Shown: in pieces, positions 1-12,627 of the stretch
Numbering within the stretch: position 1 is the stretch's first letter
How the letters are laid out: the number at the start of each line of letters is the position of its first letter
Source of the DNA: Thalassomonas viridans
GTDB lineage: Bacteria; Pseudomonadota; Gammaproteobacteria; Enterobacterales; Alteromonadaceae
NCBI RefSeq assembly: GCF_000948985.2
Contig: NZ_CP059733.1
Location: forward strand, 62,001 to 126,000
DNA length: 64,000 bases
Direction: 5' to 3'
Position numbers and translations under genes: made by a program
The notes under the pieces: generated by a model
What the model was told of the DNA's origin: nothing
The model's database searches: none
Seen by the model: the letters and a program-made list of their open reading frames with translations, nothing else

Positions 1-2124
1 GTTATTGGTACAGATAATAAAGAATCTAAATCTAAATCTCCGGGTAATCGAATAGTTAATGGTGCTAAAGGTATTGGGCGTTTTGCTTTGGATAGGCTTG
101 GTAATCAATGTGATTTGTTTTCATTATCAGGAGATGGTTTTATTCATTGGAGAGCTAATTGGTCCGATTTTGAAGGAAAAGGAAAGGTTTTAGGGGATGT
201 AACAGCTGAACTAAATGATATTAGCGGTACACTTTCAGGATTGTTTAATAAATTTGGTATAAAAAATTTAATTCCAACTTACGAACCTAGTGATACAAAA
301 GAGCAGAGTAACATTGACTTTTCTAAGGGAACTGGCATTAAGATCAGTTTTATGCGTGACCTTTGGACAGATAAAGATGTAAAAAACTTGCAAAGATCAC
401 TTTCTTCACTAATTCCACCCAAAGAACAAAAAGATTTTAATATTTATCTATGTGATGTGAGAACTGATAGTAATGATAAAAACTGGATAGCTCGTACAAT
501 ACCGGATGAGAGTGACTACTCTATTGAGGCTTTAGTTAATGAGAACGGTGAAGTATCAATTACTATCGGTAGACAGGAGTTTGATTGCTCACAGATAAGT
601 CCTACTTTTTATACTTTCGATCAAGTGAAAGAAGAAGGGTATACCAAAAGTGATATTGAAGAAGGTTATTATACTTATACAAAGTCAATAGGTGAGTTAC
701 TAAAATTAGATGATCAGCAGGAAATTGATGATTATTCCGCTTTAGGATCATTTTCATTAAATTTATTCTATTTTAAGTTGAGTCTTCCGAATAAAGATAA
801 TTTAAAACGCTTCCCTTATAAAAATTATGATGTAAAAACTCGAAAGAGTTGGCTTTCGAATTCTGGTGGAGTAAGGCTTTATAGAGATAATTTTAGAGTA
901 AGACCATATGGAGAACCAGAATCACACTCTTTTGATTGGTTGTTATTAGGTCAAAGAGTTGCGAAAAGTCCAGCAGCAGTAACACGTATAGGTGGTTGGA
1001 GAGTGAGCCCACAAAATGTAGCTGGTACAATTAGCATTTCTAAAGAGACAAACCCACTTTTAGCAGACCAGTCCAACCGAGAAGGGATAGCTAATTCTAG
1101 GGCTTTCAAGTTATTCAAAGAGCTAGTAACAGCCATTATTGCTGAATTAGAAAGGGATAGGAGTATTCTTTTTAATCATTTTGAAAAAGCATACAAGATC
1201 GATAATCCAGACGAAGAAAAAAAGCAGAAAGGTGAAAAAGCTGCTTCGAAAGCAAAATCAACAAAAGGGGAAGGAATTTCACCTGAACAAGCGTTAGATA
1301 TGGCGCAAACAATAGAAATTAATAAAGAAGAGAAGAAAGAGCTTAAAGATGAAAACCAACTCTTAAGAGGGCTAGCCACTTTAGGAACAGTATTAGTCTC
1401 TTTTACACATGAGTTAAAGCAGATACAGGCTGGTATGAAAAACAGATCTAGGAGGATGGAAGGAGCGTTAAACAAGGTTGTTGATGAGTCGAAATTAACA
1501 GAAATATCAGATGGGCTTAATCCGTATAACATGTTGGAAAGGTGGAAAAGAGAAGATAAAAAAGTTTCATATTGGGTTGATTTTGCTTTGACATCCGTTA
1601 AATCGAAAAAAAGGCGAAGACGTCGTATTCAAGTAAAAGAGTACTTTGATGAGCTGCATGCTCATTGGGAAAATTATTTAGATGCTAAGAAAACCAAACT
1701 GAAAGTTAATTGCCCTGATGACTTAGATATTAAGATCCTTGCTCATGAGATTGATTTGGATAGTGTTTTTTTTAACCTTATTATCAACTCTGTAGAAGTA
1801 TTGACTAATCCGAAAAAACCATGGGTTGGTGAGAGGAATATCAACATTGAAATAGATGGTTCAATGAGAGAGTACCTAACTATTGAATATGCTGATTCTG
1901 GGCCAGGACTATCACAATCTTTTAAAAAGCCGGAAGATATATTTATTTATGGAGAATCAACCAAATCTAATAGCTCAGGTGATAGTGATGAAGGCGATAG
2001 TACAGGGATTGGAATGTGGATTTTGAAAACTATTATAGATGAATATAAAGGAAAGGTTGTCATAAAAAATGTAGGGCAACCAGGTTTTCAGCTAAGGATT
2101 GATTTGCCTGTAGTGGAGGATTAA
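1..2124 (+). CDS. Double-GHKL sensor histidine kinase, 5' truncated by window
   Basis: The reading frame is open from base 1, so the true start lies outside the window. The visible part (707 residues) begins in an Hsp90/MutL-like GHKL ATPase region, with the glycine-rich motif GAKGIGRFA near residue 22. A segment with SNREGI near residue 360 resembles the region after such ATPase folds. A lysine-rich charged helix follows, then an H-box (FTHELKQ, His codon 1408-1410). A second GHKL kinase domain ends the protein, with N-box (NLIINS), G1 (DSGPGL) and G2 (GIGMWIL). There is no membrane segment in the visible part, so it is probably cytosolic. The receiver gene starts 2 bases after the stop. Histidine kinase chemistry is well supported; the sensed signal is unknown. 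Its place among defence-type genes suggests, by inference, a role in sensing invading DNA. Confidence 0.85.
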   Translation, partial: VIGTDNKESKSKSPGNRIVNGAKGIGRFALDRLGNQCDLFSLSGDGFIHWRANWSDFEGKGKVLGDVTAELNDISGTLSGLFNKFGIKNLIPTYEPSDTKEQSNIDFSKGTGIKISFMRDLWTDKDVKNLQRSLSSLIPPKEQKDFNIYLCDVRTDSNDKNWIARTIPDESDYSIEALVNENGEVSITIGRQEFDCSQISPTFYTFDQVKEEGYTKSDIEEGYYTYTKSIGELLKLDDQQEIDDYSALGSFSLNLFYFKLSLPNKDNLKRFPYKNYDVKTRKSWLSNSGGVRLYRDNFRVRPYGEPESHSFDWLLLGQRVAKSPAAVTRIGGWRVSPQNVAGTISISKETNPLLADQSNREGIANSRAFKLFKELVTAIIAELERDRSILFNHFEKAYKIDNPDEEKKQKGEKAASKAKSTKGEGISPEQALDMAQTIEINKEEKKELKDENQLLRGLATLGTVLVSFTHELKQIQAGMKNRSRRMEGALNKVVDESKLTEISDGLNPYNMLERWKREDKKVSYWVDFALTSVKSKKRRRRRIQVKEYFDELHAHWENYLDAKKTKLKVNCPDDLDIKILAHEIDLDSVFFNLIINSVEVLTNPKKPWVGERNINIEIDGSMREYLTIEYADSGPGLSQSFKKPEDIFIYGESTKSNSSGDSDEGDSTGIGMWILKTIIDEYKGKVVIKNVGQPGFQLRIDLPVVED

Positions 2125-2126
2125 CT

Positions 2127-2792
2127 ATGGAGGGTAACAAGTTGAATATAGTGTATATAGATGAGGAGCGCGATCAGCTGGCTGACTTTCAGGCTGATGC
2201 AGAGCTATCTGGTTTATTTGAAGAAATTTATTTGCTAGAGCCAAAATCAAATTTAGATGAAATGGTTACTGAAATTCTAGAGCTTAAAGTTGATGCTGTT
2301 ATTTCTGATTTCGCATTGAATGAAGCAAAAGTCATTAATTACAATGGCGATCAGTTGTTAAATGCAATTCAGGATATTCGTCACAATTTTCCTTGTTTTC
2401 TTAGGACTTCATATGAAGATGATGCTGTATCAAACTCATTTGACGTAAATAGGGTTTATGTGAAGGAAGACAGTATGGAGCTTCATTCGGAAAGCAATCT
2501 ATTTAAGAGAGTTGCTGCGCAAATAAGTGCTTATCATAGAAGGTTTGAAGCAATAAAGAAGGAACATATTAATTTGAAGCATAAGCTTGCAAATGAAGGA
2601 CTTAACAGCCAAGAAACTGATAGGTTGATTGAACTAGATGATTTGATTGAGTCCATGCTGTCTGCAGAAACTAAAACTCCAACCGAAGTCAAAAAGTTAG
2701 CTTTAAGTAAATTTGACGCGTTAATGGATTCAACAGACAAGTTAATCAATGATATTGAAGCTAATTTAAAAGGTAACTCATCTGATGCTTAA
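2127..2792 (+). CDS. Receiver-domain protein, partner of the histidine kinase
   Basis: This 221-residue protein has an N-terminal response-regulator receiver fold. It shows the acidic pair DE near residue 12, the likely phosphoacceptor Asp61 (VISDF), the Thr in LRTSY and the Lys in VYVKED, so all phosphorelay residues are present. The remaining 90 or so residues are charged and helical, probably a coiled coil, with no recognisable DNA-binding output domain. It starts 2 bases after the kinase stop, with a GGAGG-like site inside the kinase end, and its own end overlaps the HNH gene by 8 bases. The layout suggests that phosphorylation controls a protein partner, plausibly the nuclease, rather than transcription. 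That last step is inference. Confidence 0.85.
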   Translation: MEGNKLNIVYIDEERDQLADFQADAELSGLFEEIYLLEPKSNLDEMVTEILELKVDAVISDFALNEAKVINYNGDQLLNAIQDIRHNFPCFLRTSYEDDAVSNSFDVNRVYVKEDSMELHSESNLFKRVAAQISAYHRRFEAIKKEHINLKHKLANEGLNSQETDRLIELDDLIESMLSAETKTPTEVKKLALSKFDALMDSTDKLINDIEANLKGNSSDA

Positions 2793-3372
2793 GGTAAGGG
2801 AGATAGTACCAAAAAGAAATTTTGTAGAAAAAAAAGGACATTATAGAGAGTATCGCCCTGATTTAAGGAAAGACTTTAATGGTGCTTGTGGTTATTGTGA
2901 TGACAATGATGAATTCCAAGATAAGTCGACATTTCATATAGATCACTTTGCTCCGAAATCTAAATTTCCTGAATTAGAGTTGGAATATGAAAACTTAGTA
3001 TATAGTTGCCGTTTCTGTAACGTGGCTAAATCAAATAAATGGATATCAAATGACGCTGAAATTTCTCACAATGGAGTAAAAGGGTTCATTGATCCGTGTG
3101 ATGATAACTATGATGAGCATATATACAGAGACTTTAAAGGGGCTATAAATGCTAAATCAAGTATCGGTGCTTATTTAGTCAAGGAATTGAATCTAGGTTT
3201 AATAAGGCATGAATATTTATGGAAAGCGCGAAAGTTGAGGGCTCAGAAACTTAAATTAGAAGAGATTTTACCGAGGCTCCCTAAAGATTCAAAGGCTAGA
3301 GTTGATGTGTTAGAGGCCATTGTGGATTTAGTTCGTGAGTATGAAACATATTTCTCATGGGCTTGCAGGTGA
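2785..3372 (+). CDS. HNH-family endonuclease
   Basis: The 195-residue protein has a zinc-supported HNH nuclease core: CGYC near residue 36, HIDHFAPKS near residue 52, then CRFCN near residue 77. This CxxC-HxxH-CxxCN layout is typical of His-Me finger nucleases found in restriction and retron or Septu-like defence loci. The C-terminal half is helical and basic, with no assigned domain. The ATG lies inside the end of the receiver gene (8-base overlap), which implies translational coupling. It is the only obvious effector in the three-gene operon, so it probably cuts DNA when the kinase-receiver pair is triggered. Nuclease assignment is firm; regulation by phosphorelay is inferred. Confidence 0.85.
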   Translation: MLKVREIVPKRNFVEKKGHYREYRPDLRKDFNGACGYCDDNDEFQDKSTFHIDHFAPKSKFPELELEYENLVYSCRFCNVAKSNKWISNDAEISHNGVKGFIDPCDDNYDEHIYRDFKGAINAKSSIGAYLVKELNLGLIRHEYLWKARKLRAQKLKLEEILPRLPKDSKARVDVLEAIVDLVREYETYFSWACR

Positions 3373-3513: not shown

Positions 3514-5109
3514 ATGAGTAAAAAAAGCGGTTCTTATTATACACCTACAAGTTTAGCTAATTTTATGGTGAAGTATTTATTCGATAATGAATACTTTTCA
3601 AATAAAGCTATAAGTGTTCTAGAGCCAAGTTGTGGCGATGGTGTTTTTTTATCTGCATTAAATGAGCTGCCCTTGGGGAGCTTTGATAATGTAGATGCTA
3701 TTGACTCAGATTTAGTTGCTGTCGATAAAGCGAAAAGCTTGAAATTACCTGAATTATACAAAATTTATCATGCCGACTATCTTGAGTGGAACTTAATAAA
3801 TCACAAATGTTATGATCTCATTATAGGTAATCCGCCATATATATCTAAAAAGCTACTCTCCCAAAAGCAAAAAGAAAATTGTCGAAAAGCTCACGAAAAG
3901 ACTCCAGGGTTTGGTAGTGAAGTTAATAATATATGGACTTCATTTTTAAGTGATGCAATTTATCGAGTTAATGATAAAGGTATAATTTCATTTGTATTGC
4001 CAGCAGAGATTCTGAAGGTAAAATTTGGGGTGCGTATTCAGAAAACTCTGCTAAACCTTTTCAAAAGAGTTGAAATATTTACTTTTTCTTCAAATGTTTT
4101 TCCAAATATTGAGCAGGATACGGTTATTTTATTCTTATATAAAGAACATGTATCAGAAGGACTGTATTTTACAACTATTAATTCGTCGACCTGTTTAATT
4201 AACAATAGGTTTATATTAAAGCGTAAACGTTCATTAGAAAAACAAAAGTTAAAGTGGAGCGCTTATCCATTATTTGAATATCAAATAGCTCATGTCCACA
4301 AGATTAAAAAATCTATACCTCAAATTACAGATTATTGTGAAACAATCCCTGGTATTGTTACGGCAGCTAATAGTTATTTCATAGCTTCGCAATCTACAGT
4401 TGATGAATATGATTTAAGTAGCATTAGTCAACCGATTATTCAAAAAGGTATGTATGTTAATGGCTGTGTAAAGTTATCGAAGAGTAAAATGGGGAGACTT
4501 ATAAATGAAGGTAAGCCATCGTTTTTCTTGGATTTTTCAAAAGCAGATCTTTCCAATCCTAGACACAAGAAATATCTAAAATCTGGAATTGAGCAAAGAA
4601 TTCCTGAGCGTTATAAATGTACTTTGAGGGAAAATTGGTATGAAGTCCCAGGAGCCTGGGTTGCAGAAGGCTTTTTCTTTAAAAGGTGTCATGACTATCC
4701 TAAGCTAATCTTTAATGAAGCATTAGCTTTGGTAACAGATGCATCCTATAGAATAAAAATGAAAAATGGGTTTGATATAAAATCGTTAATTTTTTCTTTT
4801 TATAACTCAATGACTTTAGCATTTGCTGAATTACAAGGAAGATACTACGGAGGGGGGGTTTTAGAGCTAACACCTTCTGAATTTAAGTCTCTACCTATTC
4901 CTTATATCAAAATAACTGATGAATTATTTGATGAGTTTGTCGCTCGATTTCATGATAAAACTTCAATTGAAGATATACTCGAATTTAATGATGAAATCAT
5001 ACTCAAACAAGAGCTAGATATGCCACACTCAGAAATAGCCTCTCTAAAAAAAGTTCGAGATATTTTACTGGATAGAAGACTAAATATAAGCAAAAGTCAA
5101 TTTACCTAG
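3514..5109 (+). CDS. N6-adenine DNA methyltransferase (Eco57I/TaqI type)
   Basis: The 531-residue protein carries the SAM-binding motif I (VLEPSCGDG, near residue 37) and the catalytic motif IV NPPY (IIGNPPY, near residue 107), diagnostic of N6-adenine class I DNA methyltransferases. The second half resembles the TaqI/Eco57I-type target recognition region, with LTPSEFKSLPIP near residue 455. The length fits a stand-alone type II-like enzyme. No restriction endonuclease follows: the next gene is convergent and 21 bases away. It may be an orphan methyltransferase, or protect host DNA from one of the neighbouring effectors. No strong ribosome site precedes the ATG. The recognition sequence cannot be predicted. 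Confidence 0.85.
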   Translation: MSKKSGSYYTPTSLANFMVKYLFDNEYFSNKAISVLEPSCGDGVFLSALNELPLGSFDNVDAIDSDLVAVDKAKSLKLPELYKIYHADYLEWNLINHKCYDLIIGNPPYISKKLLSQKQKENCRKAHEKTPGFGSEVNNIWTSFLSDAIYRVNDKGIISFVLPAEILKVKFGVRIQKTLLNLFKRVEIFTFSSNVFPNIEQDTVILFLYKEHVSEGLYFTTINSSTCLINNRFILKRKRSLEKQKLKWSAYPLFEYQIAHVHKIKKSIPQITDYCETIPGIVTAANSYFIASQSTVDEYDLSSISQPIIQKGMYVNGCVKLSKSKMGRLINEGKPSFFLDFSKADLSNPRHKKYLKSGIEQRIPERYKCTLRENWYEVPGAWVAEGFFFKRCHDYPKLIFNEALALVTDASYRIKMKNGFDIKSLIFSFYNSMTLAFAELQGRYYGGGVLELTPSEFKSLPIPYIKITDELFDEFVARFHDKTSIEDILEFNDEIILKQELDMPHSEIASLKKVRDILLDRRLNISKSQFT

Positions 5110-5130: not shown

Positions 5131-6744
5131 TTAGTTCTTGTTAGGTTTTAGTTGGGCTTTGATAAAAGACTTTTTACAATAAAATTTATTTAGATAAATA
5201 GCACTATCAACAATATCTTTTTGTAACTTGGCTTTAATAAAGCTTTTGATAATAGCGTTAATTGATTTGGAAACTATTTTTTTTACTTCTGGCTCTTTAA
5301 TAGGAGCTTGGGACAATAATATAACGCTTCCTTTACTTCCTTTTGCTATAGATACTACACCGTCATCGGTAATATTTAGTGATATTTCATTTTCACCAAA
5401 CCCCTCTGATCTTAAAGCTAAATAATTACAAAAAACAGTTAGTGTAAACTGCTTAATAAATTCGTTTAAGCTAATTTTCTCTTCATATTGCGAGAGAAAA
5501 TAATCATGCATTTTTTTTTGTCTTTTAGATATTTTAAGGCTTTTAAATGGGTTCTCAGTTTGCCACCTCTTTTTTGAAAGAGTGAATTCTGTATTTTCTA
5601 GTGCATCTACTAATTCATTGTTTGTGTTTACTTTAGTAAAAAAAACAGATGAAATTTTTGACCTTAGATAAACCTCTCCTGTATGGGTAAGGTATTCGAT
5701 AATTAAGCTAGATGAATTAGTATAAAGCCATAATTGATATAAAAACTGTGAGGCATGAATGGCTCGAGCTTCATAGTCGCTATACAGTTGCATATCAGTT
5801 ACTTTTAAAAGCGAATCTTCTTTGTCTGTTTGAAGATCGATAACCTTAAACCCCTGAGAACTTAGCTTGCCTATGAAATCGACTTCTCTTGATTCATTTC
5901 TGACTTTAATATGGTTGCTATTAGAACTGTCTAACACTTTATGAATAGAGTCTTGATTGTTAAAAGAAAAGATATTTTCTGAAAGGCGCATTAAAGTAAA
6001 AGATAAAACAACCTTTTTTACAATAAGAAATAACTCAGTTCTTGAAAGATTTATTTCTTCTCGCTGGTTTTTTTGTAAATATGAAATATAGATATTGTTT
6101 TCAATAACTTTAATATTATGGTGATAGGCGATATTCCTCCATTGGTTTAATCGAATGTTGTGGGGAGTAATAACTAAAATAGAATCAAGATTAGAGGTGT
6201 TTATAAGCTCATCAATACATTCACCTAAATCTCTATTTTTGATGTCTCCTGCAATAGCATTCTTTCCCCTTTTAATTCTATTTAGGTGTATAAGCAAGAA
6301 AACAAAGTTCTTTATGACACCTTCAATCATTTTGCCAATTGTATCCATAGATATCTCTACAAAATCATCAAGCGATAACTTACTTAAATCATGTTGATAG
6401 TTTAATAGAGACCATAATCTTGATATTCCATGTGATATTTCGGGGAGCCATTCTACATAAGCATTTAAGGTCGCTATGTGATTGGCTTTCTTAGCCTCAT
6501 TAAATATATTTAGAATTTCTTCTAATGAGGTTAAAAACTCTGGAAACTCTTTGTAAACTGAGAGGTACATTTGCCAAGTATTTATTAGTTCTGAAAAGGC
6601 GTATTTTTTGAAATTTTGTTTGTCTAGAAAGTAAGTAGATAAGCTGTCAAATAGAGACTCTTTTATTTCTTCTGGTGACATACCACAGTCATAAAAGTGA
6701 GAAAGAAAGTTGGACTTGTAATAGTTTTCAATGTTTTTTGTCAT
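5131..6744 (-). CDS. Uncharacterised protein with HEPN-like RNxxxH motif
   Basis: I do not recognise this 537-residue protein as a named family. It is mostly helical and rich in Lys, Asn and Ser, with no signal peptide. Around residue 208 it has RNIAYHHN followed by alternating strands and acidic residues. This matches the RNxxxH signature and following pattern of HEPN domains, which are often RNases or nucleotide-transfer targets in abortive-infection and toxin systems. The start at 6744 is preferred over 6750 because the AGGG ribosome site is then correctly spaced. It converges on the methyltransferase gene and shares its low GC content. HEPN assignment is motif-based and moderate; any RNase role is inferred. 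Confidence 0.55.
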   Translation of the reverse strand: MTKNIENYYKSNFLSHFYDCGMSPEEIKESLFDSLSTYFLDKQNFKKYAFSELINTWQMYLSVYKEFPEFLTSLEEILNIFNEAKKANHIATLNAYVEWLPEISHGISRLWSLLNYQHDLSKLSLDDFVEISMDTIGKMIEGVIKNFVFLLIHLNRIKRGKNAIAGDIKNRDLGECIDELINTSNLDSILVITPHNIRLNQWRNIAYHHNIKVIENNIYISYLQKNQREEINLSRTELFLIVKKVVLSFTLMRLSENIFSFNNQDSIHKVLDSSNSNHIKVRNESREVDFIGKLSSQGFKVIDLQTDKEDSLLKVTDMQLYSDYEARAIHASQFLYQLWLYTNSSSLIIEYLTHTGEVYLRSKISSVFFTKVNTNNELVDALENTEFTLSKKRWQTENPFKSLKISKRQKKMHDYFLSQYEEKISLNEFIKQFTLTVFCNYLALRSEGFGENEISLNITDDGVVSIAKGSKGSVILLSQAPIKEPEVKKIVSKSINAIIKSFIKAKLQKDIVDSAIYLNKFYCKKSFIKAQLKPNKN

Positions 6745-7082
6745 GTACATCCCTGAATTATTTTTAATAGCTTATAAGCATATGAATAATAATTGTATTT
6801 TAAAATAGAATATAAGGAGGAATTATAAAAAAAGGTCAAAGCCATATGGAGAAAATCTTAATACTGACAATATCCATTAAATTATAAATGGTTTGTTATT
6901 TGATTAGAAGCCGAACGGTAACTCTCCAATTTTTAACCGAAATTGTAAGTAGGGGTTAATCAGAATGCTATGATGGTAAGGAGAAAGGAGATGAGAAGGT
7001 AAAGTTTAATAATTGTTGGATTTCCTTCCTGCGCCTTGAAGAAAATAAATGTAGTAAAACTTTAAATTGAATAGGAATTCTA
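6745..7082. other. Intergenic AT-rich region, no gene seen
   Basis: It should hold the promoter for the leftward HEPN-like gene and for the rightward 54-residue ORF. A perfect AAGGAGG at 6815-6821 on the plus strand is not followed by a usable start codon. Nothing else stands out. Confidence 0.4.
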
Positions 7083-7247: not shown

Positions 7248-7433
7248 TATTTATTTTTTATCTAACTTGAGTGGTGAAGCTGTGTTATATCATGCCTATA
7301 GAAATAATGCTGCTTCGCTCTGTTCTTTGGATTTCTATAAACATTTTAATGATTGGCTGCCGTCTGGTGTATTTTATGTGTGCTCTAGTTCTGGTGTCTG
7401 TGTTCTAATTCATAGCGGTGAAAAAACGAGTTT

Positions 7434-7581
7434 CAGTATGATACTTTATTACTCAAAATTTTGATATTTTTTAAAGATAGTCAAATTCAGTATGAAACTT
7501 TATTTTTAAAACCTTGAAAAATCTAACAGAAAAACAGGCCTTGCGGGACAATCCAGTATGCAACTTTATTACTCTCCCACA
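7434..7581. mobile_element. Tn7-like transposon distal end (element 1)
   Basis: Three direct repeats of CAGTATGnnACTTTATT begin at 7434, 7488 and 7554 (spacing 54 and 66). The last runs into the terminal octamer CTCCCACA at 7574-7581. Read on the other strand the terminus is TGTGGGAG, then AATAAAGT, then a conserved ACTGAA-type tail, closely resembling Tn7 ends (TGTGGGCG..., TnsB sites containing AATAAAGT). Known Tn7-like ends have several TnsB sites per end. The cargo lies to the left, so the kinase, methyltransferase and HEPN genes would belong to this element; its other end is outside the window. Confidence 0.7.
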
Positions 7582-7586
7582 AAATT

Positions 7587-7618
7587 TGTGGGAGAGTAAT
7601 AAAGTATCATACTGAAAC
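7587..7618. mobile_element. Tn7-like proximal end (element 2 left terminus)
   Basis: Terminal TGTGGGAG at 7587-7594 is followed by a TnsB-type site with AATAAAGT and ACTGAAAC up to 7618. Together with the end of element 1 it forms a near-perfect inverted repeat of about 30 bases per arm around AAATT (7582-7586). Further inner TnsB sites are not clearly seen. Confidence 0.65.
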
Positions 7619-7662
7619 CGTCCTGTTTGGCTCAAAGTCAGAGTTAAATAGGGCGGTTTTTT

Positions 7663-7755
7663 ATGGCATCGAGAAAACTTGGCAACTCAAAAGCTAAGAA
7701 CAGGAAGTGGGTTAAAGAAGGCAGCAGGGGCTCCGGACAAAACGTAGGCTGCTAG
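7663..7755 (+). pseudogene. tnsA: Possible relic of tnsA 5' end
   Basis: A 30-codon basic frame starts 76 bases inside the transposon end. It ends KEGSRGSGQNVGC, and after its stop the same frame continues PWISVK. From memory, E. coli TnsA has KEGRGQGHGKDYIPWLTV near its N-terminus, so order and spacing match (10 versus 11 positions between KEG and PW). tnsA lies just inside one end of Tn7, which agrees with this position. The rest of the gene and all other tns genes are gone. The match is short, so the call is tentative. Confidence 0.4.
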
Positions 7756-7840
7756 CCTTGGATCTCCGTCAAGAATTGACCATTGTTTACTCGTGCCTTA
7801 AAGTCTCATTTATACCATTATCTATAAGCATGACTTTCCT

Positions 7841-8716
7841 TTGCAAAGAAAAACTGAACTTGAATCTATTGAGCTTAGGCTGGTTCAATTAGAGCAAGAG
7901 AGAAAGCACTTGTTACTTCGAAAACAAGCGCTAATTTCTGCTATGAATGATGAGCGGCGGGTTGTCGTGAATTTCACTCCGGAGCAGAAGGTTCATATCT
8001 TTGCAGAGCTTTTTCGAGGACGAACTGACATTTATGCTAATCGCTGGCAGAATAAACAACAACGCAGTGGTTACTCTGTTGCTTGCCACAATGAATGGCA
8101 ACAGGGAAAATGTCATAAACCAAAAGTCAAATGTACTGAATGTTCATATCAGGCGTTTAAAAGGTTAGATCATCAAGCTATTTATCAGCATCTATCCGGT
8201 AAACAGTCAATTGGCCTTTACCCCTTGTTGGAAGATGATCATTGCTGGTTATTGGTAGTAGATTTTGACAAATCTGATTGGCGGGAAGCGGTAACGGCTT
8301 TTCGCAAAGCCTGTCATGAATGGCAACTCCCCTGCAGTGTTGAGATTTCTCGTTCCGGTAACGGGGCTCATGTCTGGCTGTTTTTTGATTCCCCTTTATT
8401 GGCTAGAGATGTTCGTCAGTTAGGTTTTTCCTTGTTGGATAAGGCGATGAGTTTTCATGCTGGTTTATCTTTTGAATCTTACGACAGGCTTTTTCCTAAT
8501 CAGGATGTATTACCTGTTGGCGGTTTTGGCAATTTGATTGCCCTGCCCTTGCAATATGGTCCACGGCAAAACGGTAATAGCGTGTTTGTTGATGAAGAGT
8601 TTCACGCATATTTCGATCAATGGGGTTATTTAGCTGCTATTGAAAAAGTGACTTTAAAACAAGTCGAGTCATGTTTAAATCAAAAAGAAATGGGTATACA
8701 AGTAGCTTCTGACTTA
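7841..8716 (+). pseudogene. TOTE-type AEP primase part of frameshifted gene
   Basis: The frame starts at TTG 7841 with a coiled-coil helix of about 30 residues. Next comes a module with conserved NRW, a zinc-like Cys set (CHNEW, GKC, CTEC) and YQHLSG near residue 120. An archaeo-eukaryotic primase core follows, with VVDFDK near residue 144, then SRSGNGAHVW and LFPNQD. This order is that of TOTE conflict-system primases, normally fused to a helicase in one protein. The frame stays open to 8809, but its homologous content stops near 8713. There it must shift by -1 to continue as LKPWEM and the helicase. The cause is either a one-base deletion or recoding at CTTAAAC (8713-8719). Without a shift only the primase would be made. 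Confidence 0.75.
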
Positions 8717-8727
8717 AACCTTGGGAA

Positions 8728-10209
8728 ATGTCATTCATTGGCAATAAGGAGGCTATTGCCGGCTGCCCTGTGGAAGTTACTCTGGTGTTGGCAAATCGTA
8801 TTTATATAGAAATTGATGCTTTACCACAGGCTTTGTTGGCAAAACTCAAGCGTATTGCCAGTTTTTCCAATCCGGTTTTCTTTAAAACCCAGGCCTTGCG
8901 TTTCTCAACTAACGGCATGCCCCGTTTTATTTGCTTGGCCTATGTAGAAAGCGGTTATTTATCTCTGCCCAGAGGCTGTATTGATGAAGTGATTGAGTTG
9001 CTCAGTCAGCAAGCCATAGAAATTAAGTTTGACGATAAACGTCGTAATGGTGTGCGATTAAAGGGCTTGGTGTTTAAAGGAGAACTTAGAAAAGATCAAA
9101 AAAAAGCCGTATCAGCTATGGTGAAGCATGATACTGGCGTACTGCATGCGCCAACGGCTTTTGGTAAAACGGTCACCGCCATAGGACTTATTAACAGGCG
9201 TAAGGTGAATACACTTATTCTGGTTCACAGTCGCCAGTTGTTGGATCAGTGGAAAGAGCGATTGGCTATTTTTCTTGGTGGTTGCGAAGTCGGAATAATA
9301 GGCGGAGGCAAACGTAAGCAAACTAAACAAGTTGATATAGCCACTTACCAGAGCATAATAAACCGCAAGGATAATACAGTAGACCCGATGTTATATGAGT
9401 ATGGGCAGGTTATCATCGATGAATGTCACCATATTCCCGCGTCAAATTATGAAATGATCTTGAGTGAAGTGCATGCCAAATTTGTGCTTGGTATTACTGC
9501 TACGCCGAACAGGCAAGACGGGCATCAACCGATTATATTTATGCAAGCAGGACCTATTCGGCATACTGTTGCAGCTGCAGGCGAAACCAGGTTTACTCAG
9601 CAAGTATTACTTAGCAATATACAAACCCAATTTCCTGTAGAGTTTTTAGAAAAAGATGCCCGACCGCATATCGCGGATGTTTATAGGTATTTGATGAATC
9701 ATAAGGAAAGAAATGATCTCATTATCTCTGATGTAGAGGTTGCGGTTAATCAAGGCCGAGTCCCCATTGTCTTAACAGAACGAAGAGAGCATGCTCAATT
9801 GATGGGTGAGCTATTGTCTGAAAGAGGCATTAGTTTTCAGGTATTACGCGGTGCAATGAGGGCTAAGGAAAGGGAAGCTGCGATGGCAGTTTTGAATGAA
9901 ACCCAGGTATTGGTTGCCACCGGTAAATATATAGGCGAAGGCTTTGATCTGCCTAAACTTGACACTTTGTTTCTAGCTCTGCCTATTTCCTGGAAAGGTT
10001 CTTTAGTTCAATATGTTGGGCGGATCCACAGACAATTTGAAGGTAAAGAAAAAGTTTTGGTTTATGACTATGTTGATGAGCTTTTGCCTATGCTGCAAAG
10101 GATGTATCAAAAACGAGCTAAAGGATATTCGGCAATGGATTACACAGTTACTGAAAAAGGAGAAGAGGAGTTACTACAAGCTCCACTTCAGTTGGAAGCA
10201 AATGATTGA
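8728..10209 (+). CDS. TOTE-type superfamily 2 helicase part
   Basis: The 493-codon frame holds the helicase half of a TOTE-like primase-helicase. Motifs in order are Walker A FGKT near residue 146, IIDECHH near residue 228 (a DEAH-box variant), GITATP near residue 254, and the C-terminal lobe with GEGFDLPKLD and QYVGRIHR near residue 430. The frame upstream reads LKPWE before the ATG at 8728, showing it originally continued from the primase. It may be made separately from this ATG or as a frameshift fusion. Biological role of TOTE systems, from family knowledge: counter-selfish-element conflict systems. Integrity of this copy is uncertain. Confidence 0.75.
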   Translation: MSFIGNKEAIAGCPVEVTLVLANRIYIEIDALPQALLAKLKRIASFSNPVFFKTQALRFSTNGMPRFICLAYVESGYLSLPRGCIDEVIELLSQQAIEIKFDDKRRNGVRLKGLVFKGELRKDQKKAVSAMVKHDTGVLHAPTAFGKTVTAIGLINRRKVNTLILVHSRQLLDQWKERLAIFLGGCEVGIIGGGKRKQTKQVDIATYQSIINRKDNTVDPMLYEYGQVIIDECHHIPASNYEMILSEVHAKFVLGITATPNRQDGHQPIIFMQAGPIRHTVAAAGETRFTQQVLLSNIQTQFPVEFLEKDARPHIADVYRYLMNHKERNDLIISDVEVAVNQGRVPIVLTERREHAQLMGELLSERGISFQVLRGAMRAKEREAAMAVLNETQVLVATGKYIGEGFDLPKLDTLFLALPISWKGSLVQYVGRIHRQFEGKEKVLVYDYVDELLPMLQRMYQKRAKGYSAMDYTVTEKGEEELLQAPLQLEAND

Positions 10210-10570
10210 TAACAATTTCAGTATGATTAAAGGTGCTTGGAATGTCTGCATGTCCAATGAATAAGATAAATATACTTGAATAGTTGCAATATTAATTCAT
10301 ACAAATCTGTTTATTTAAGTTAGGGCGCCTTTGATAGCTTTCTATTGATATATAGGTAAAATGCATAGATCGTTTTGTTATTCGGTTTTTGATATAAATG
10401 AGTGCAATTGATTTGTTTGCAGATGCTGGTGGTTACTGTGTAGCTCTGGCTTTGATAATTACAGGCAAAGCTGAATGCTCTTAGATTCAAACCATTATTA
10501 GTGGAAAACTCTATATGAACTTATACCTGGGAGAAACCTGGTCACAGCAACAATCAGGGGAGCTGATCTG
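10210..10570. other. Intergenic region inside element 2
   Basis: No convincing gene is present. A TTTCAGTATGAT string at 10,216-10,227 resembles the first half of a transposon-end repeat. A 28-codon frame at 10,398-10,484 starts like a cytosine-5 methyltransferase (AIDLFADAGG) but stops at once. The ribosome site GGGGAG of the AAA ATPase gene lies at 10,557-10,562. Confidence 0.4.
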
Positions 10571-11668
10571 ATGAAACAGGTAAAAAGTGAGTCTCACCTT
10601 AGCCACCTTAGCATTGAAGGTTATAAATCTATTGCTAAGTGTGACATGGAAATGGCGGCTCTTAACGTTTTGATAGGCGCTAATGGTGCGGGAAAGTCTA
10701 ATTTTATTAGTTTTTTTAAGTTGATTGCAACTGTTCTGGATGAGCGGCTACAAAGCTATGTAAGTAAATCAGGCGGACCTGATGCTTTATTGCATTTTGG
10801 ACGAAAAACCACGGAGCATCTGACTGCTAGTGTAAAATGTGGTGAAAATGGTTATGGTTTTAGGCTAGAGCCAACTAATGATAACCGCATGATGTTCGAA
10901 CGTGAAGCTCTATGGTGGAAGCCGCATGGGGAGTGGCGCCCTCGTAGTGGGCACTTTGAAAGTGTGGTAGAAGAGCAAAAACGTAAAACCGCTATTTATG
11001 ATTATACCATTCCAAGGTTACGCCAATGGCGTGTGTACCATTTCCATGATACCAGTGATTCTGCAAAAGTTAAGCAGATTCATCGTATTAATGATAATGA
11101 TTATCTGAGAGAAGATGGAGCTAACCTTGCCGCTTTTCTGTATCGATTACAAAGGCACCATGAAAGCCAGTACAAACGCATTGTTAAAACTATTCAGATG
11201 GTTGCGCCATTCTTTGGAAACTTTTACTTAAGGTCAACGCCTGATAGTCCTGACAATATACAGCTGGAATGGACAGAACTAGGGCAGGATATACCGTTTA
11301 AAGCCAGTGAGCTTTCCGATGGCACCTTGCGCTTTATTCTACTGGCAACGGTTTTGTTACAGCCTGAAGAATTTATGCCAAGTGCCATTATAGTAGATGA
11401 GCCTGAGCTTGGCTTACATCCTTATGCCATATCGGTTTTGGCTGCACTGATTAAAAGTGCTAGTTATTTACATCAGTTGATTATCTCTACTCAGTCAGTA
11501 GAACTTGTTAATGAGTTTGAGGCTGAAGACCTTATTGTGGTTGATAAAAAAGAGGGGGCGTCAACCTTTAAGCGTTTGGATGAAAACCACCTTAAAGAGT
11601 GGTTGGAAGATTATAGTCTTGGAGAGTTGTGGAAGAAAAACCTGCTTGGCGGGAGGCCACAACGATGA
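10571..11668 (+). CDS. AAA ATPase (ABC/OLD-like, AAA_21 type)
   Basis: The 365-residue protein has Walker A GANGAGKSN near residue 40, an ABC-like signature region SELSDGTLRF near residue 245, and Walker B IIVDEPELGLHP near residue 275. A switch segment STQS replaces the usual STHS. This is the architecture of single-subunit SMC/RecF-like ATPases of OLD, PARIS and Septu-type systems. The next gene overlaps it as ATGA, a strong sign of a functional pair. A GGGGAG site precedes the ATG. By analogy it may sense a phage-derived trigger and hold or release the partner effector; that is inference. Confidence 0.85.
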   Translation: MKQVKSESHLSHLSIEGYKSIAKCDMEMAALNVLIGANGAGKSNFISFFKLIATVLDERLQSYVSKSGGPDALLHFGRKTTEHLTASVKCGENGYGFRLEPTNDNRMMFEREALWWKPHGEWRPRSGHFESVVEEQKRKTAIYDYTIPRLRQWRVYHFHDTSDSAKVKQIHRINDNDYLREDGANLAAFLYRLQRHHESQYKRIVKTIQMVAPFFGNFYLRSTPDSPDNIQLEWTELGQDIPFKASELSDGTLRFILLATVLLQPEEFMPSAIIVDEPELGLHPYAISVLAALIKSASYLHQLIISTQSVELVNEFEAEDLIVVDKKEGASTFKRLDENHLKEWLEDYSLGELWKKNLLGGRPQR

Positions 11669-12324
11669 TCCGGGTTAATATCTTGGTTGAGGGGCAAACA
11701 GAAGAGACTTTTGTTCGTGACGTTTTGATTCCTGCATATTCAAGTGCTGGCATTTTCTTTACGGCTATCTTGGCTGAGACCAGTCCCGGGCATAAAGGCG
11801 GTATTGTAAACTACGGTAAAACTAAACGTCAGTTGGTGCGTTTGTGCCAGAGAGATCAAAGTGCCTATGTGACGACTATGATTGATTACTATGGCTTGCC
11901 AACCGATTTTCCCGGCATAAATGATTCTGCTATTTCTAATGAGGTAAACATTCAAACTCGTATGGAATTGCTAGAAAGTGCATTGGAGTTGGATGTTAAT
12001 CAGAACAACTTTATTGCCAATTATTTGCTTCATGAGTTTGAGGCATTACTGTTTTGTCAGCCTGATAAATTTGAAACTTGGCTAGATAATGCCCCTGTTT
12101 CAGATTTAGAGAGAGTGAGAGCTGAATTCCCAACGCCTGAGCATATTAATAATAGTCCACAAACATCCCCGTCAAAACGTATCATGGCGATGGCTCCTCA
12201 TTATAAAAAAGTACTGCATGGCCCTATGATAGCTGGAGACATAGGCCTTGAAAATATTCGCCAACAGTGCCCTCATTTTAATCATTGGCTGGAACGTATT
12301 GAAGCGTTAGCTGTAAATAATTAA
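11665..12324 (+). CDS. DUF4276 family protein, putative effector partner
   Basis: This 219-residue protein begins VNILVEGQTEETFVRDVL, then has MIDYYGLPTDFPG near residue 70 and LLHEFEALLF near residue 118. These are the hallmarks of DUF4276, whose acidic residues resemble a TOPRIM-like metal site. The start at 11,665 gives a 4-base overlap with the ATPase stop. ATPase plus TOPRIM-like nuclease pairs are known as phage defence (for example PARIS, with a different DUF), so a nuclease role is plausible but unproven. No frame damage is visible. Confidence 0.8.
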   Translation: MIRVNILVEGQTEETFVRDVLIPAYSSAGIFFTAILAETSPGHKGGIVNYGKTKRQLVRLCQRDQSAYVTTMIDYYGLPTDFPGINDSAISNEVNIQTRMELLESALELDVNQNNFIANYLLHEFEALLFCQPDKFETWLDNAPVSDLERVRAEFPTPEHINNSPQTSPSKRIMAMAPHYKKVLHGPMIAGDIGLENIRQQCPHFNHWLERIEALAVNN

Positions 12325-12627
12325 TATCGGGCTTAAAGAGCAAGATGAGTAATACGCAGTAACTTAGTCTCTCTATTTTATATGAATATATAGAAGCTAT
12401 TTTCAGTATGATACTTTATTACTCAAAATTTTGATGTTTTTTGAAGATTGCCAAATTCAGTATGAAACTTTATTTTTAGAGCTTGGAAAAATCTAACAGA
12501 AGAATGGGCCCTGTGAGGTAATCCAGTATGTAGATAAAGTAAGTTCACTATTGTGTGATTAGAAGTGCTTCTCTACCTGCCTTTAGCTATAGTTAAAGGC
12601 TCAGTGTTAGTTTTAAAAGGATTTAAA
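12325..12627. other. Intergenic: distal transposon end plus effector leader
   Basis: It contains the distal-end repeats of element 2 (12,401-12,528) and the 99-base leader of the effector gene. The leader starts at TGTAGATAAAGT (12,529) and has an AAAAGGA ribosome site before ATG 12,628. No other gene is seen. Confidence 0.6.
12401..12528. repeat. Second copy of Tn7-like distal end, terminus lost
   Basis: Aligning 12,401-12,530 with 7431-7560 gives 114 identical bases of 130 by hand count. The CAGTATG repeats at 12,404, 12,458 and 12,524 have exactly the same spacing (54, 66) as in element 1. After the third CAGTATG the expected ACTTTATTACTCTCCCACA is absent and effector-leader DNA begins. 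Confidence 0.8.

What the first reader, a model, noticed from the sequence alone, without database searches (positions are those of the whole stretch)
1..3372. Phosphorelay-controlled HNH nuclease module
A kinase with two GHKL-type regions and an H-box (His codon 1408), a receiver protein with all phosphorelay residues but no DNA-binding output domain, and an HNH nuclease are joined by a 2-base gap and an 8-base overlap inside a defence-type island. Detocs is a known two-component-like phage defence with other effectors, and MORC/MutL-like GHKL ATPases are known near restriction systems. A histidine kinase plus receiver plus HNH combination is not one I can name. The receiver's coiled-coil tail could hold or release the nuclease.
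Basis: partly seen in the sequence, partly recalled or inferred. Interest (0 to 1): 0.78.

Follow-up and report, generated by a model that had tools for sequence, protein, structure and literature searches.

The report
Phosphorelay-type restriction-modification operon in Tn7
Four genes that travel together across many bacteria look like a DNA-restriction system in which a DNA-clamp-like sensor kinase switches a DNA-cutting enzyme on by phosphate transfer, while a companion enzyme marks the cell's own DNA; this reading is untested.

Summary
The kinase gene is intact (834 aa, starting 380 bases before the window), followed after 2 bases by a 221-aa receiver and, with an 8-base overlap, a 195-aa HNH nuclease. 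Of 88 related loci, 77 keep kinase-receiver-HNH-methyltransferase in that order; 3 have the methyltransferase upstream, 6 are cut by contig ends, 1 lacks a near one, 1 has the kinase alone. Kinase, receiver and HNH, searched separately in 398 genomes, have the same three best genomes (one is this genome). The modelled kinase joins a MORC/Hsp90-type ATPase cassette to a complete histidine kinase; His, receiver Asp and HNH residues are invariant. Methyltransferase class is swapped repeatedly against a conserved core. Here the operon, plus one reverse-strand ORF, is the whole cargo of a 15.8-kb Tn7-type element; two other tns sets carry divergent copies in the same slot. Closest in print: HEF_HK/Response_reg_2 pairs (PMC8011034); both defining domains fail here. 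Likely restriction-modification-type defence with a His-Asp-gated nuclease: phosphotransfer, cutting and phage protection are inferred; defence-island enrichment was not shown. New variant of a known kind.

The parts
1..2124 (+). MORC-type ATPase / histidine kinase, C-terminal 707 of 834 aa; the gene starts 380 bases before the window (G000:C1:61620). DHp His H597 at codon 1408-1410
   Evidence: HATPase_c_3 23-175, HATPase_c 710-831; H597 92 of 92; model of the L042 orthologue: residues 7-525 match MORC/Hsp90, 597-846 match histidine kinases
2127..2792 (+). Stand-alone receiver (CheY-like) with three-helix C-terminal tail; acidic pair D12/E13, phospho-acceptor D61, T94, K113
   Evidence: D61 88 of 88; AlphaFold2 pLDDT 91.4; 38 PDB matches at E <= 0.001, mostly receiver-bearing proteins, 4 lysine decarboxylases
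2785..3372 (+). HNH nuclease, PtuB/TIGR02646-like; H54, N70, N79 and Cys C35/C75 invariant in 86 rows; second Cys pair C38/C78 present or lost together
3514..5109 (+). N6-adenine DNA methyltransferase (M.Eco57I/BseCI-like, NPPY at residue 106), fourth component
5131..6750 (-). 539-aa ORF of unknown family, convergent to the methyltransferase; a relative sits in the same place in L077 (Pedobacter). Possible accessory gene, not part of the conserved core
   Evidence: no family; 33% identity over 510 aa
7430..7581 (.). Left end of the Tn7-type element (repeats matching, inverted, the right end between glmS and tnsA from L002:7817); bounds the cargo

Best explanation
A four-gene restriction-modification-type defence system in which cleavage is gated by a His-Asp phosphorelay. 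The methyltransferase marks host DNA with N6-methyladenine at its site. The kinase is a MORC/MutL-like ATP-driven clamp joined to a DHp-CA histidine kinase; when it engages DNA lacking the mark, directly or through the methyltransferase as site scanner, clamp closure triggers autophosphorylation on H597. The phosphate passes to D61 of the receiver, whose helical tail then releases or activates the HNH nuclease, which cuts the invading DNA. Shown by sequence and models: composition, gene order, folds, conserved active sites, mutual co-occurrence, exchange of methyltransferase class against a constant core, carriage on mobile elements. Inferred: the signal, phosphotransfer, control of HNH by the receiver, DNA as substrate, phage protection.
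Against: No biochemical or phage data. No second gene with the methyltransferase's sequence specificity is visible, so how the nuclease finds unmethylated sites is unknown. The PtuB-like HNH might cut RNA or host DNA instead. No partner model of receiver with HNH was run. Neighbour scan did not show defence-gene enrichment over arbitrary regions. MORC-type ATPases can work without phosphotransfer (recalled). No core residue tracks the methyltransferase class. Part of the kinase's N-terminal motif conservation (G130, T131, G148-R154) is built in, because loci were found by patterns over those residues.
Confidence: 0.55

Rival explanations
1. Abortive or guard system: the methyltransferase (or its product) keeps the kinase silent; when a phage disturbs it or its own DNA metabolism, the relay unleashes the HNH nuclease on host DNA or RNA and the cell dies, as PtuB-type effectors of Septu/retron systems are used.
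For: The HNH belongs near PtuB/TIGR02646 (PADLOC PtuB model E 3e-21; TIGR02646 49.1 bits; PtuB chains), a family recalled to act as abortive effector. No restriction specificity protein is visible apart from the methyltransferase.
Against: A dedicated methyltransferase in 77+3 of 88 loci is what a self/non-self restriction system needs; a guard would have less reason for repeated change of methyltransferase class (inference).
Confidence: 0.2
2. Mechanical paraMORC model: the GHKL domains are only an ATP-driven DNA-looping clamp that brings nuclease and sites together; the histidine-kinase part is a dimerisation/ATPase module without phosphotransfer and the receiver is an adaptor.
For: Iyer et al. 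2008 proposed looping for MORC/paraMORC ATPases in R-M operons (PMC2292703, passages read). Two ATPase sites in one chain.
Against: H597 92 of 92 and D61 88 of 88, with D12/E13, T94 and K113 nearly invariant, are residues of phosphotransfer, not needed for looping.
Confidence: 0.13
3. Two-component regulation of an ordinary R-M system: the receiver adjusts expression or stability of HNH and methyltransferase.
For: Kinase plus receiver next to R-M genes; Bellieny-Rabelo et al. suggest a regulatory role for their related pairs (PMC8011034).
Against: No DNA-binding domain in the receiver by Pfam; the model shows a receiver core and three tail helices. The HNH is a tight operon partner, its gene overlapping the receiver gene by a median of 8 bases.
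Confidence: 0.07
4. Chance neighbourhood: unrelated signalling and R-M genes in a mobile element.
For: Mobile elements gather unrelated cargo.
Against: Order conserved in 77 of 88 loci from several phyla and reciprocal co-occurrence.
Confidence: 0.01

Closest known systems
HEF_HK (PF19191) / Response_reg_2 (PF19192) two-component-like pairs near R-M genes, Bellieny-Rabelo et al. 2021, PMC8011034 (parts 1-5 of 7 read)
   Same: HATPase_c_3 + DHp-like + HATPase_c kinase beside a receiver-like protein, with DNA methyltransferases and sometimes HNH genes nearby; paraMORC relation proposed.
   Different: PF19191 and PF19192 do not match here. In three loci that do match the kinase (991-1003 aa) bears HEF_HK, the receiver protein is 555-617 aa and the methyltransferase is C5 type, 3 of 3 each; here 834 aa, 221 aa, N6 type and a separate HNH gene.
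paraMORC1 ATPases of Iyer et al. 2008, PMC2292703 (passages read)
   Same: GHKL+S5 ATPase with intact motifs and a C-terminal extension, in operons with DNA methylases, some with HNH endonucleases.
   Different: The passages name no histidine kinase in the extension, and the word 'receiver' does not occur in the text; member sequences were not compared.
Septu PtuAB / retron PtuB (TIGR02646) HNH effectors
   Same: HNH nuclease of the same broad family.
   Different: No PtuA match for the kinase; a receiver and a methyltransferase are added.
Detocs (recalled; the original paper was not in the listing)
   Same: Two-component-like phage defence with an effector.
   Different: From memory: no MORC cassette, no methyltransferase, other effectors.
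DefensePredictor predicted systems, PMC13092281 (passages and one legend read)
   Same: A figure legend lists HATPase and REC domains among unvalidated predicted systems.
   Different: Whether any of them is this operon cannot be told from the text held.

Membership tests
HEF_HK/Response_reg_2 system | Kinase has HATPase_c_3 N-terminal and HATPase_c C-terminal | tested here: met
   relatives
HEF_HK/Response_reg_2 system | HEF_HK (PF19191) domain in the kinase | tested here: not met
   No match at E 0.01, nor in five relatives at E 1 (L036, L042, L038 and the more distant L037, L040); 0 of 17 genomes. Positive control: 3 of 3 kinases of Response_reg_2 loci match
HEF_HK/Response_reg_2 system | Response_reg_2 (PF19192) in the receiver protein | tested here: not met
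   0 of 17 genomes; the same model rings in 3 of 274 genomes of the class
HEF_HK/Response_reg_2 system | C5-cytosine methyltransferase neighbour (common, not universal) | tested here: not met
   Here N6-adenine type; C5 type in 3 of 3 control loci
Two-component phosphorelay | DHp His and CA ATP-binding motifs in one chain | tested here: met
Two-component phosphorelay | Receiver fold with acidic pocket, Asp, Thr/Ser, Lys | tested here: met
Two-component phosphorelay | Phosphotransfer from His to Asp | not testable with these tools
   needs biochemistry
MORC/paraMORC ATPase | GHKL + S5-type cassette | tested here: met
Type II restriction-modification | Methyltransferase gene coupled with a nuclease gene | tested here: met
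Type II restriction-modification | Nuclease cuts the same site that the methyltransferase protects | not testable with these tools
   needs methylome and cleavage assays
Septu (PtuAB) | PtuB-type HNH | tested here: inconclusive
   PADLOC PtuB E 3e-21, TIGR02646 49.1 bits under its 52.15 cut-off
Septu (PtuAB) | PtuA ATPase partner | tested here: not met
   Full kinase: one weak PADLOC match (REase_II, E 5.5e-4, over the ATPase motif), no PtuA; Pfam matches are GHKL only
Detocs | DtcA/DtcB/DtcC proteins | not tested
   No sequences or paper at hand

The most novel reading that the evidence does not exclude
A widespread, uncatalogued class of restriction-modification system in which a MORC-type DNA clamp kinase licenses an HNH nuclease by His-Asp phosphotransfer, and whose target specificity is supplied by an exchangeable methyltransferase, so that the same kinase-receiver-nuclease core can be re-aimed by swapping one gene.
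Probability: 0.35. Interest if true: 0.85.

Novelty: new variant of a known kind. Interest (0 to 1): 0.62.

Why it matters
Classical restriction enzymes decide by site recognition. A restriction system gated by a signalling phosphorelay, with a MORC-like clamp as sensor, would join two-component signalling, MORC/MutL ATPases and R-M in one pathway, would give a tractable bacterial model for MORC function, and would explain a family that PADLOC 2.0.0 does not model: 0 matches at E 0.01 for four receivers and none better than 1.8e-4 for four full kinases, although 486 relatives of the kinase turned up in one genome scan. The clear active-site residues make it directly testable.

Tried and rejected
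The search for homologous proteins was tried with kinase and receiver and failed or timed out; I did not repeat it and used genome and contig scans instead. A viral-contig scan with the receiver alignment could not run.

Defence-island enrichment: 148 neighbouring ORFs (of 151 picked, at most the two nearest per locus, from 673) against PADLOC gave at most 5 members for any family and at most 3 for any Pfam family. As control, 106 ORFs from 11 arbitrary regions (16 asked for, 5 contigs too short) matched 93 PADLOC families against 118 for the neighbours. The tool does not count distinct members, and the arbitrary regions were not checked to be free of islands; they held PrrC and type I specificity matches. 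I call this inconclusive, not support. It shows no fifth partner recurring among the nearest ORFs.

I looked for a residue of kinase, receiver or HNH that tracks the methyltransferase class; none separates the classes (best 0.66 of 0.94 bits; the HNH Cys-pair state disagrees in 18 rows), so direct coupling to the methyltransferase is not shown. Transcription control by the receiver was set low for lack of a DNA-binding domain. Chance neighbourhood was rejected.

The 80 genome loci are the best of 486 relatives, so conservation in the other 406 was not examined; more distant cousins (Campylobacter, Enterobacter: kinase plus a 340-357-aa receiver protein, no HNH gene among the annotated neighbours) exist. 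L128 has the kinase alone; L053 lacks a near methyltransferase by my cut-off (a weak match lies about 670 bases on); L129, a 4.5-kb fragment, was not scored. Many loci are MAGs, among them the archaeal one (Methanolobus, L099).
Full report
Observation. The three ORFs lie exactly where stated. The window is G000:C1:62001-126000; the stretch before it (L002) gives the whole kinase, L002:15620-18124, 834 aa, with HATPase_c_3 at 23-175 and HATPase_c at 710-831. The receiver has only matches under cut-off (Pfam DUF6715, E 0.0018; NCBIfam response regulator LM5578_1851, E 1.4e-4). The HNH protein matches PF01844 (6e-10), TIGR02646 (49.1 bits, just under its cut-off) and PADLOC's PtuB models (best 3e-21). 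The next gene, 3514-5109, is an N6-adenine methyltransferase: M_Eco57I_C and N6_Mtase in Pfam, MTase_II in PADLOC (1e-130), M.BseCI and M.TaqI among solved structures.

Setting. Upstream of the kinase lie a glmS-like gene (SIS and glutamine amidotransferase domains; the name glmS is my reading) and tnsA, B, C, D, E (TnsB by position and a weak Mu-transpos_C match); the kinase starts 14 bases after tnsE. Three tandem repeats between glmS and tnsA (from L002:7817) recur inverted at window 7430-7581, so the element runs from L002:7817 to window 7581, 15,765 bases by my count, and its cargo is the four-gene operon plus one reverse-strand ORF (5131-6750). Five bases (AAATT; ATATT at the glmS side, so not a perfect duplication) separate it from the right end of a second element at 7587 that keeps only a piece of tnsA (67.5% identity over 40 aa at 7663-7782) and carries TOTE-type primase/helicase genes and a HEC-01 pair before left-end-like repeats at 12,400-12,530. 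The 'defence island' is thus two stacked Tn7-type insertions.

Conservation. A scan of one genome per species with a six-kinase alignment gave 486 relatives, of which the best 80 were kept; viral contigs gave 9. Of these 89 loci 88 were scored (not L129): 77 have kinase-receiver-HNH-methyltransferase in that order on one strand, 3 have kinase-receiver-HNH with the methyltransferase upstream, 6 are cut by a contig end, 1 (L053) lacks a near methyltransferase and 1 (L128) has the kinase alone. Junctions are tight: kinase-receiver median 1 base (82 of 87 within 60), receiver-HNH median -8 (83 of 83), HNH-methyltransferase median -4 (73 of 77). Plasmids of Salipiger, Ensifer and Bacteroides have all four genes in that order; one of Deinococcus has the methyltransferase first, and one of Rhizobium has a kinase gene split by a stop and only a weak, more distant methyltransferase match. 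Organisms in the tree are from Pseudomonadota, Bacteroidota, Bacillota, Campylobacterota, Verrucomicrobiota, Kiritimatiellota, Myxococcota, Thermodesulfobacteriota, Auribacterota and one archaeal MAG. Reciprocal test: in 398 genomes of the phylum the kinase, receiver and HNH each have G000, G339 and G326 as their best matches, with E-values dropping after the third from 4e-38 to 3e-22, 5e-23 to 1e-8 and 6e-25 to 8e-16. G000 is this genome, and the queries are or hold its proteins, so two genomes carry the test. In viral contigs, of 9 HNH matches under 1e-30 (local profile), 8 have kinase and receiver next to them; 6 of those contigs had already been found with the kinase, 2 are new, and the ninth (L155) shows neither.

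Active sites. In 92 kinases E30, N34, D37 (91 plus one gap), D112, G114, G116, H597, N719, N723, G796 and G798 are kept; 598 is E or D. G130, T131 and the GxKGxGR motif are kept too, but loci were found by patterns over them. In 88 receivers D61 is invariant, D12 84 D and 3 E, T94 85 T and 2 S, K113 86 K and 1 R, each with one gap. In 86 HNH proteins C35, H54, N70, C75, N79 and K82 are invariant; the second Cys pair 38/78 is Cys-Cys in 56 and lost on both sides in 30, never on one.

Methyltransferase exchange. Across 82 loci, pairwise identities of kinase and receiver correlate at 0.86, kinase and HNH at 0.76, kinase and methyltransferase at 0.50. By similarity the methyltransferases fall into five classes (50, 28, 2, 1, 1); on the kinase tree these need 13 changes where 4 is the least possible, though classes cluster far more than shuffles (27.1 on average) (quick tree, SH-aLRT support only). 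Pairs such as L102/L105 share 66% of the kinase and 62% of the HNH but about 20% of the methyltransferase. I read this as a constant core served by exchangeable methyltransferases. In a type II system with an independent nuclease such a swap would leave sites unprotected; it hints that site choice comes through the methyltransferase, which is inference. No core residue tracks the methyltransferase class.

Mobility. Two other loci have the operon as next gene after tnsE of a tnsABCDE set: L109 (Pseudocolwellia; tns proteins 62-83% identical to ours, glmS-like 85%) and L060 (Rheinheimera; 28-43%, no glmS-like match in the stretch held), although their kinases are only 35-36% identical to ours and lie elsewhere in the tree. 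Their transposon ends were not sought. The same slot was thus filled more than once.

Known or new. Bellieny-Rabelo et al. 2021 (PMC8011034, parts 1-5 of 7 read) describe HEF_HK kinases with the same outer domains, linked to Response_reg_2 proteins near R-M genes, often with C5 methyltransferases and with HNH_2 genes in seven genera. Their two defining domains do not match our proteins or the relatives tested, nor anything in 17 genomes, this one and 16 reached through loci of this family. As control, PF19192 rang in 3 of 274 genomes, and at these three loci the kinase matches PF19191, the receiver protein PF19192 and the neighbour the C5 methyltransferase PF00145, 3 of 3 each. Iyer et al. 2008 (PMC2292703, passages) noted paraMORC1 genes near HNH endonucleases. 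In the listings of six searches for parts of the combination (four of the six listings were cut short) I saw no title or abstract opening describing the four-gene unit, and the passages I opened do not describe it; preprints and most subscription papers are not held. A DefensePredictor legend names HATPase and REC domains in a predicted system that may or may not be related. PADLOC gave at best a weak match (E 5.5e-4, REase_II, over the ATPase motif) for the full kinase and none for the receiver.

Verdict. A real, conserved four-gene system; best read as restriction-modification with a phosphorelay-gated HNH nuclease, a new variant of a known but, as far as I saw, untested kind. Phosphotransfer, nuclease control and phage defence are inferred.

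Noticed in passing
window 5131-6750 (-); L077:15718-17307 (-): A 539-aa ORF without any family match sits convergent to the methyltransferase; a 33%-identical relative sits in the same place behind the operon of Pedobacter steynii. Possible accessory gene.
   Followed up: partly
window 7582-12540: A second, eroded Tn7-type element directly behind the first: right end at 7587, a 40-aa tnsA remnant at 7663, TOTE-type primase (7841-8809) and helicase (8728-10209), HEC-01A/B pair (10571-12324), degenerate left-end repeats at 12400-12530.
   Followed up: partly
L060, L109: Other tnsABCDE sets with divergent copies of the operon as next gene after tnsE: a preferred cargo slot.
   Followed up: partly
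HNH protein, residues 38 and 78: One zinc-type Cys pair is either complete (56 of 86) or replaced on both sides (30 of 86), mostly by Thr/Val.
   Followed up: yes
L040, L037: More distant cousins (Campylobacter and Enterobacter plasmids): MORC-type kinase with a 340-357-aa receiver protein, in Campylobacter next to a C5 methyltransferase by annotation, that match neither HEF_HK nor Response_reg_2.
   Followed up: no
L033:7941-10568: The Rhizobium phaseoli plasmid copy of the kinase is split by an in-frame stop.
   Followed up: no
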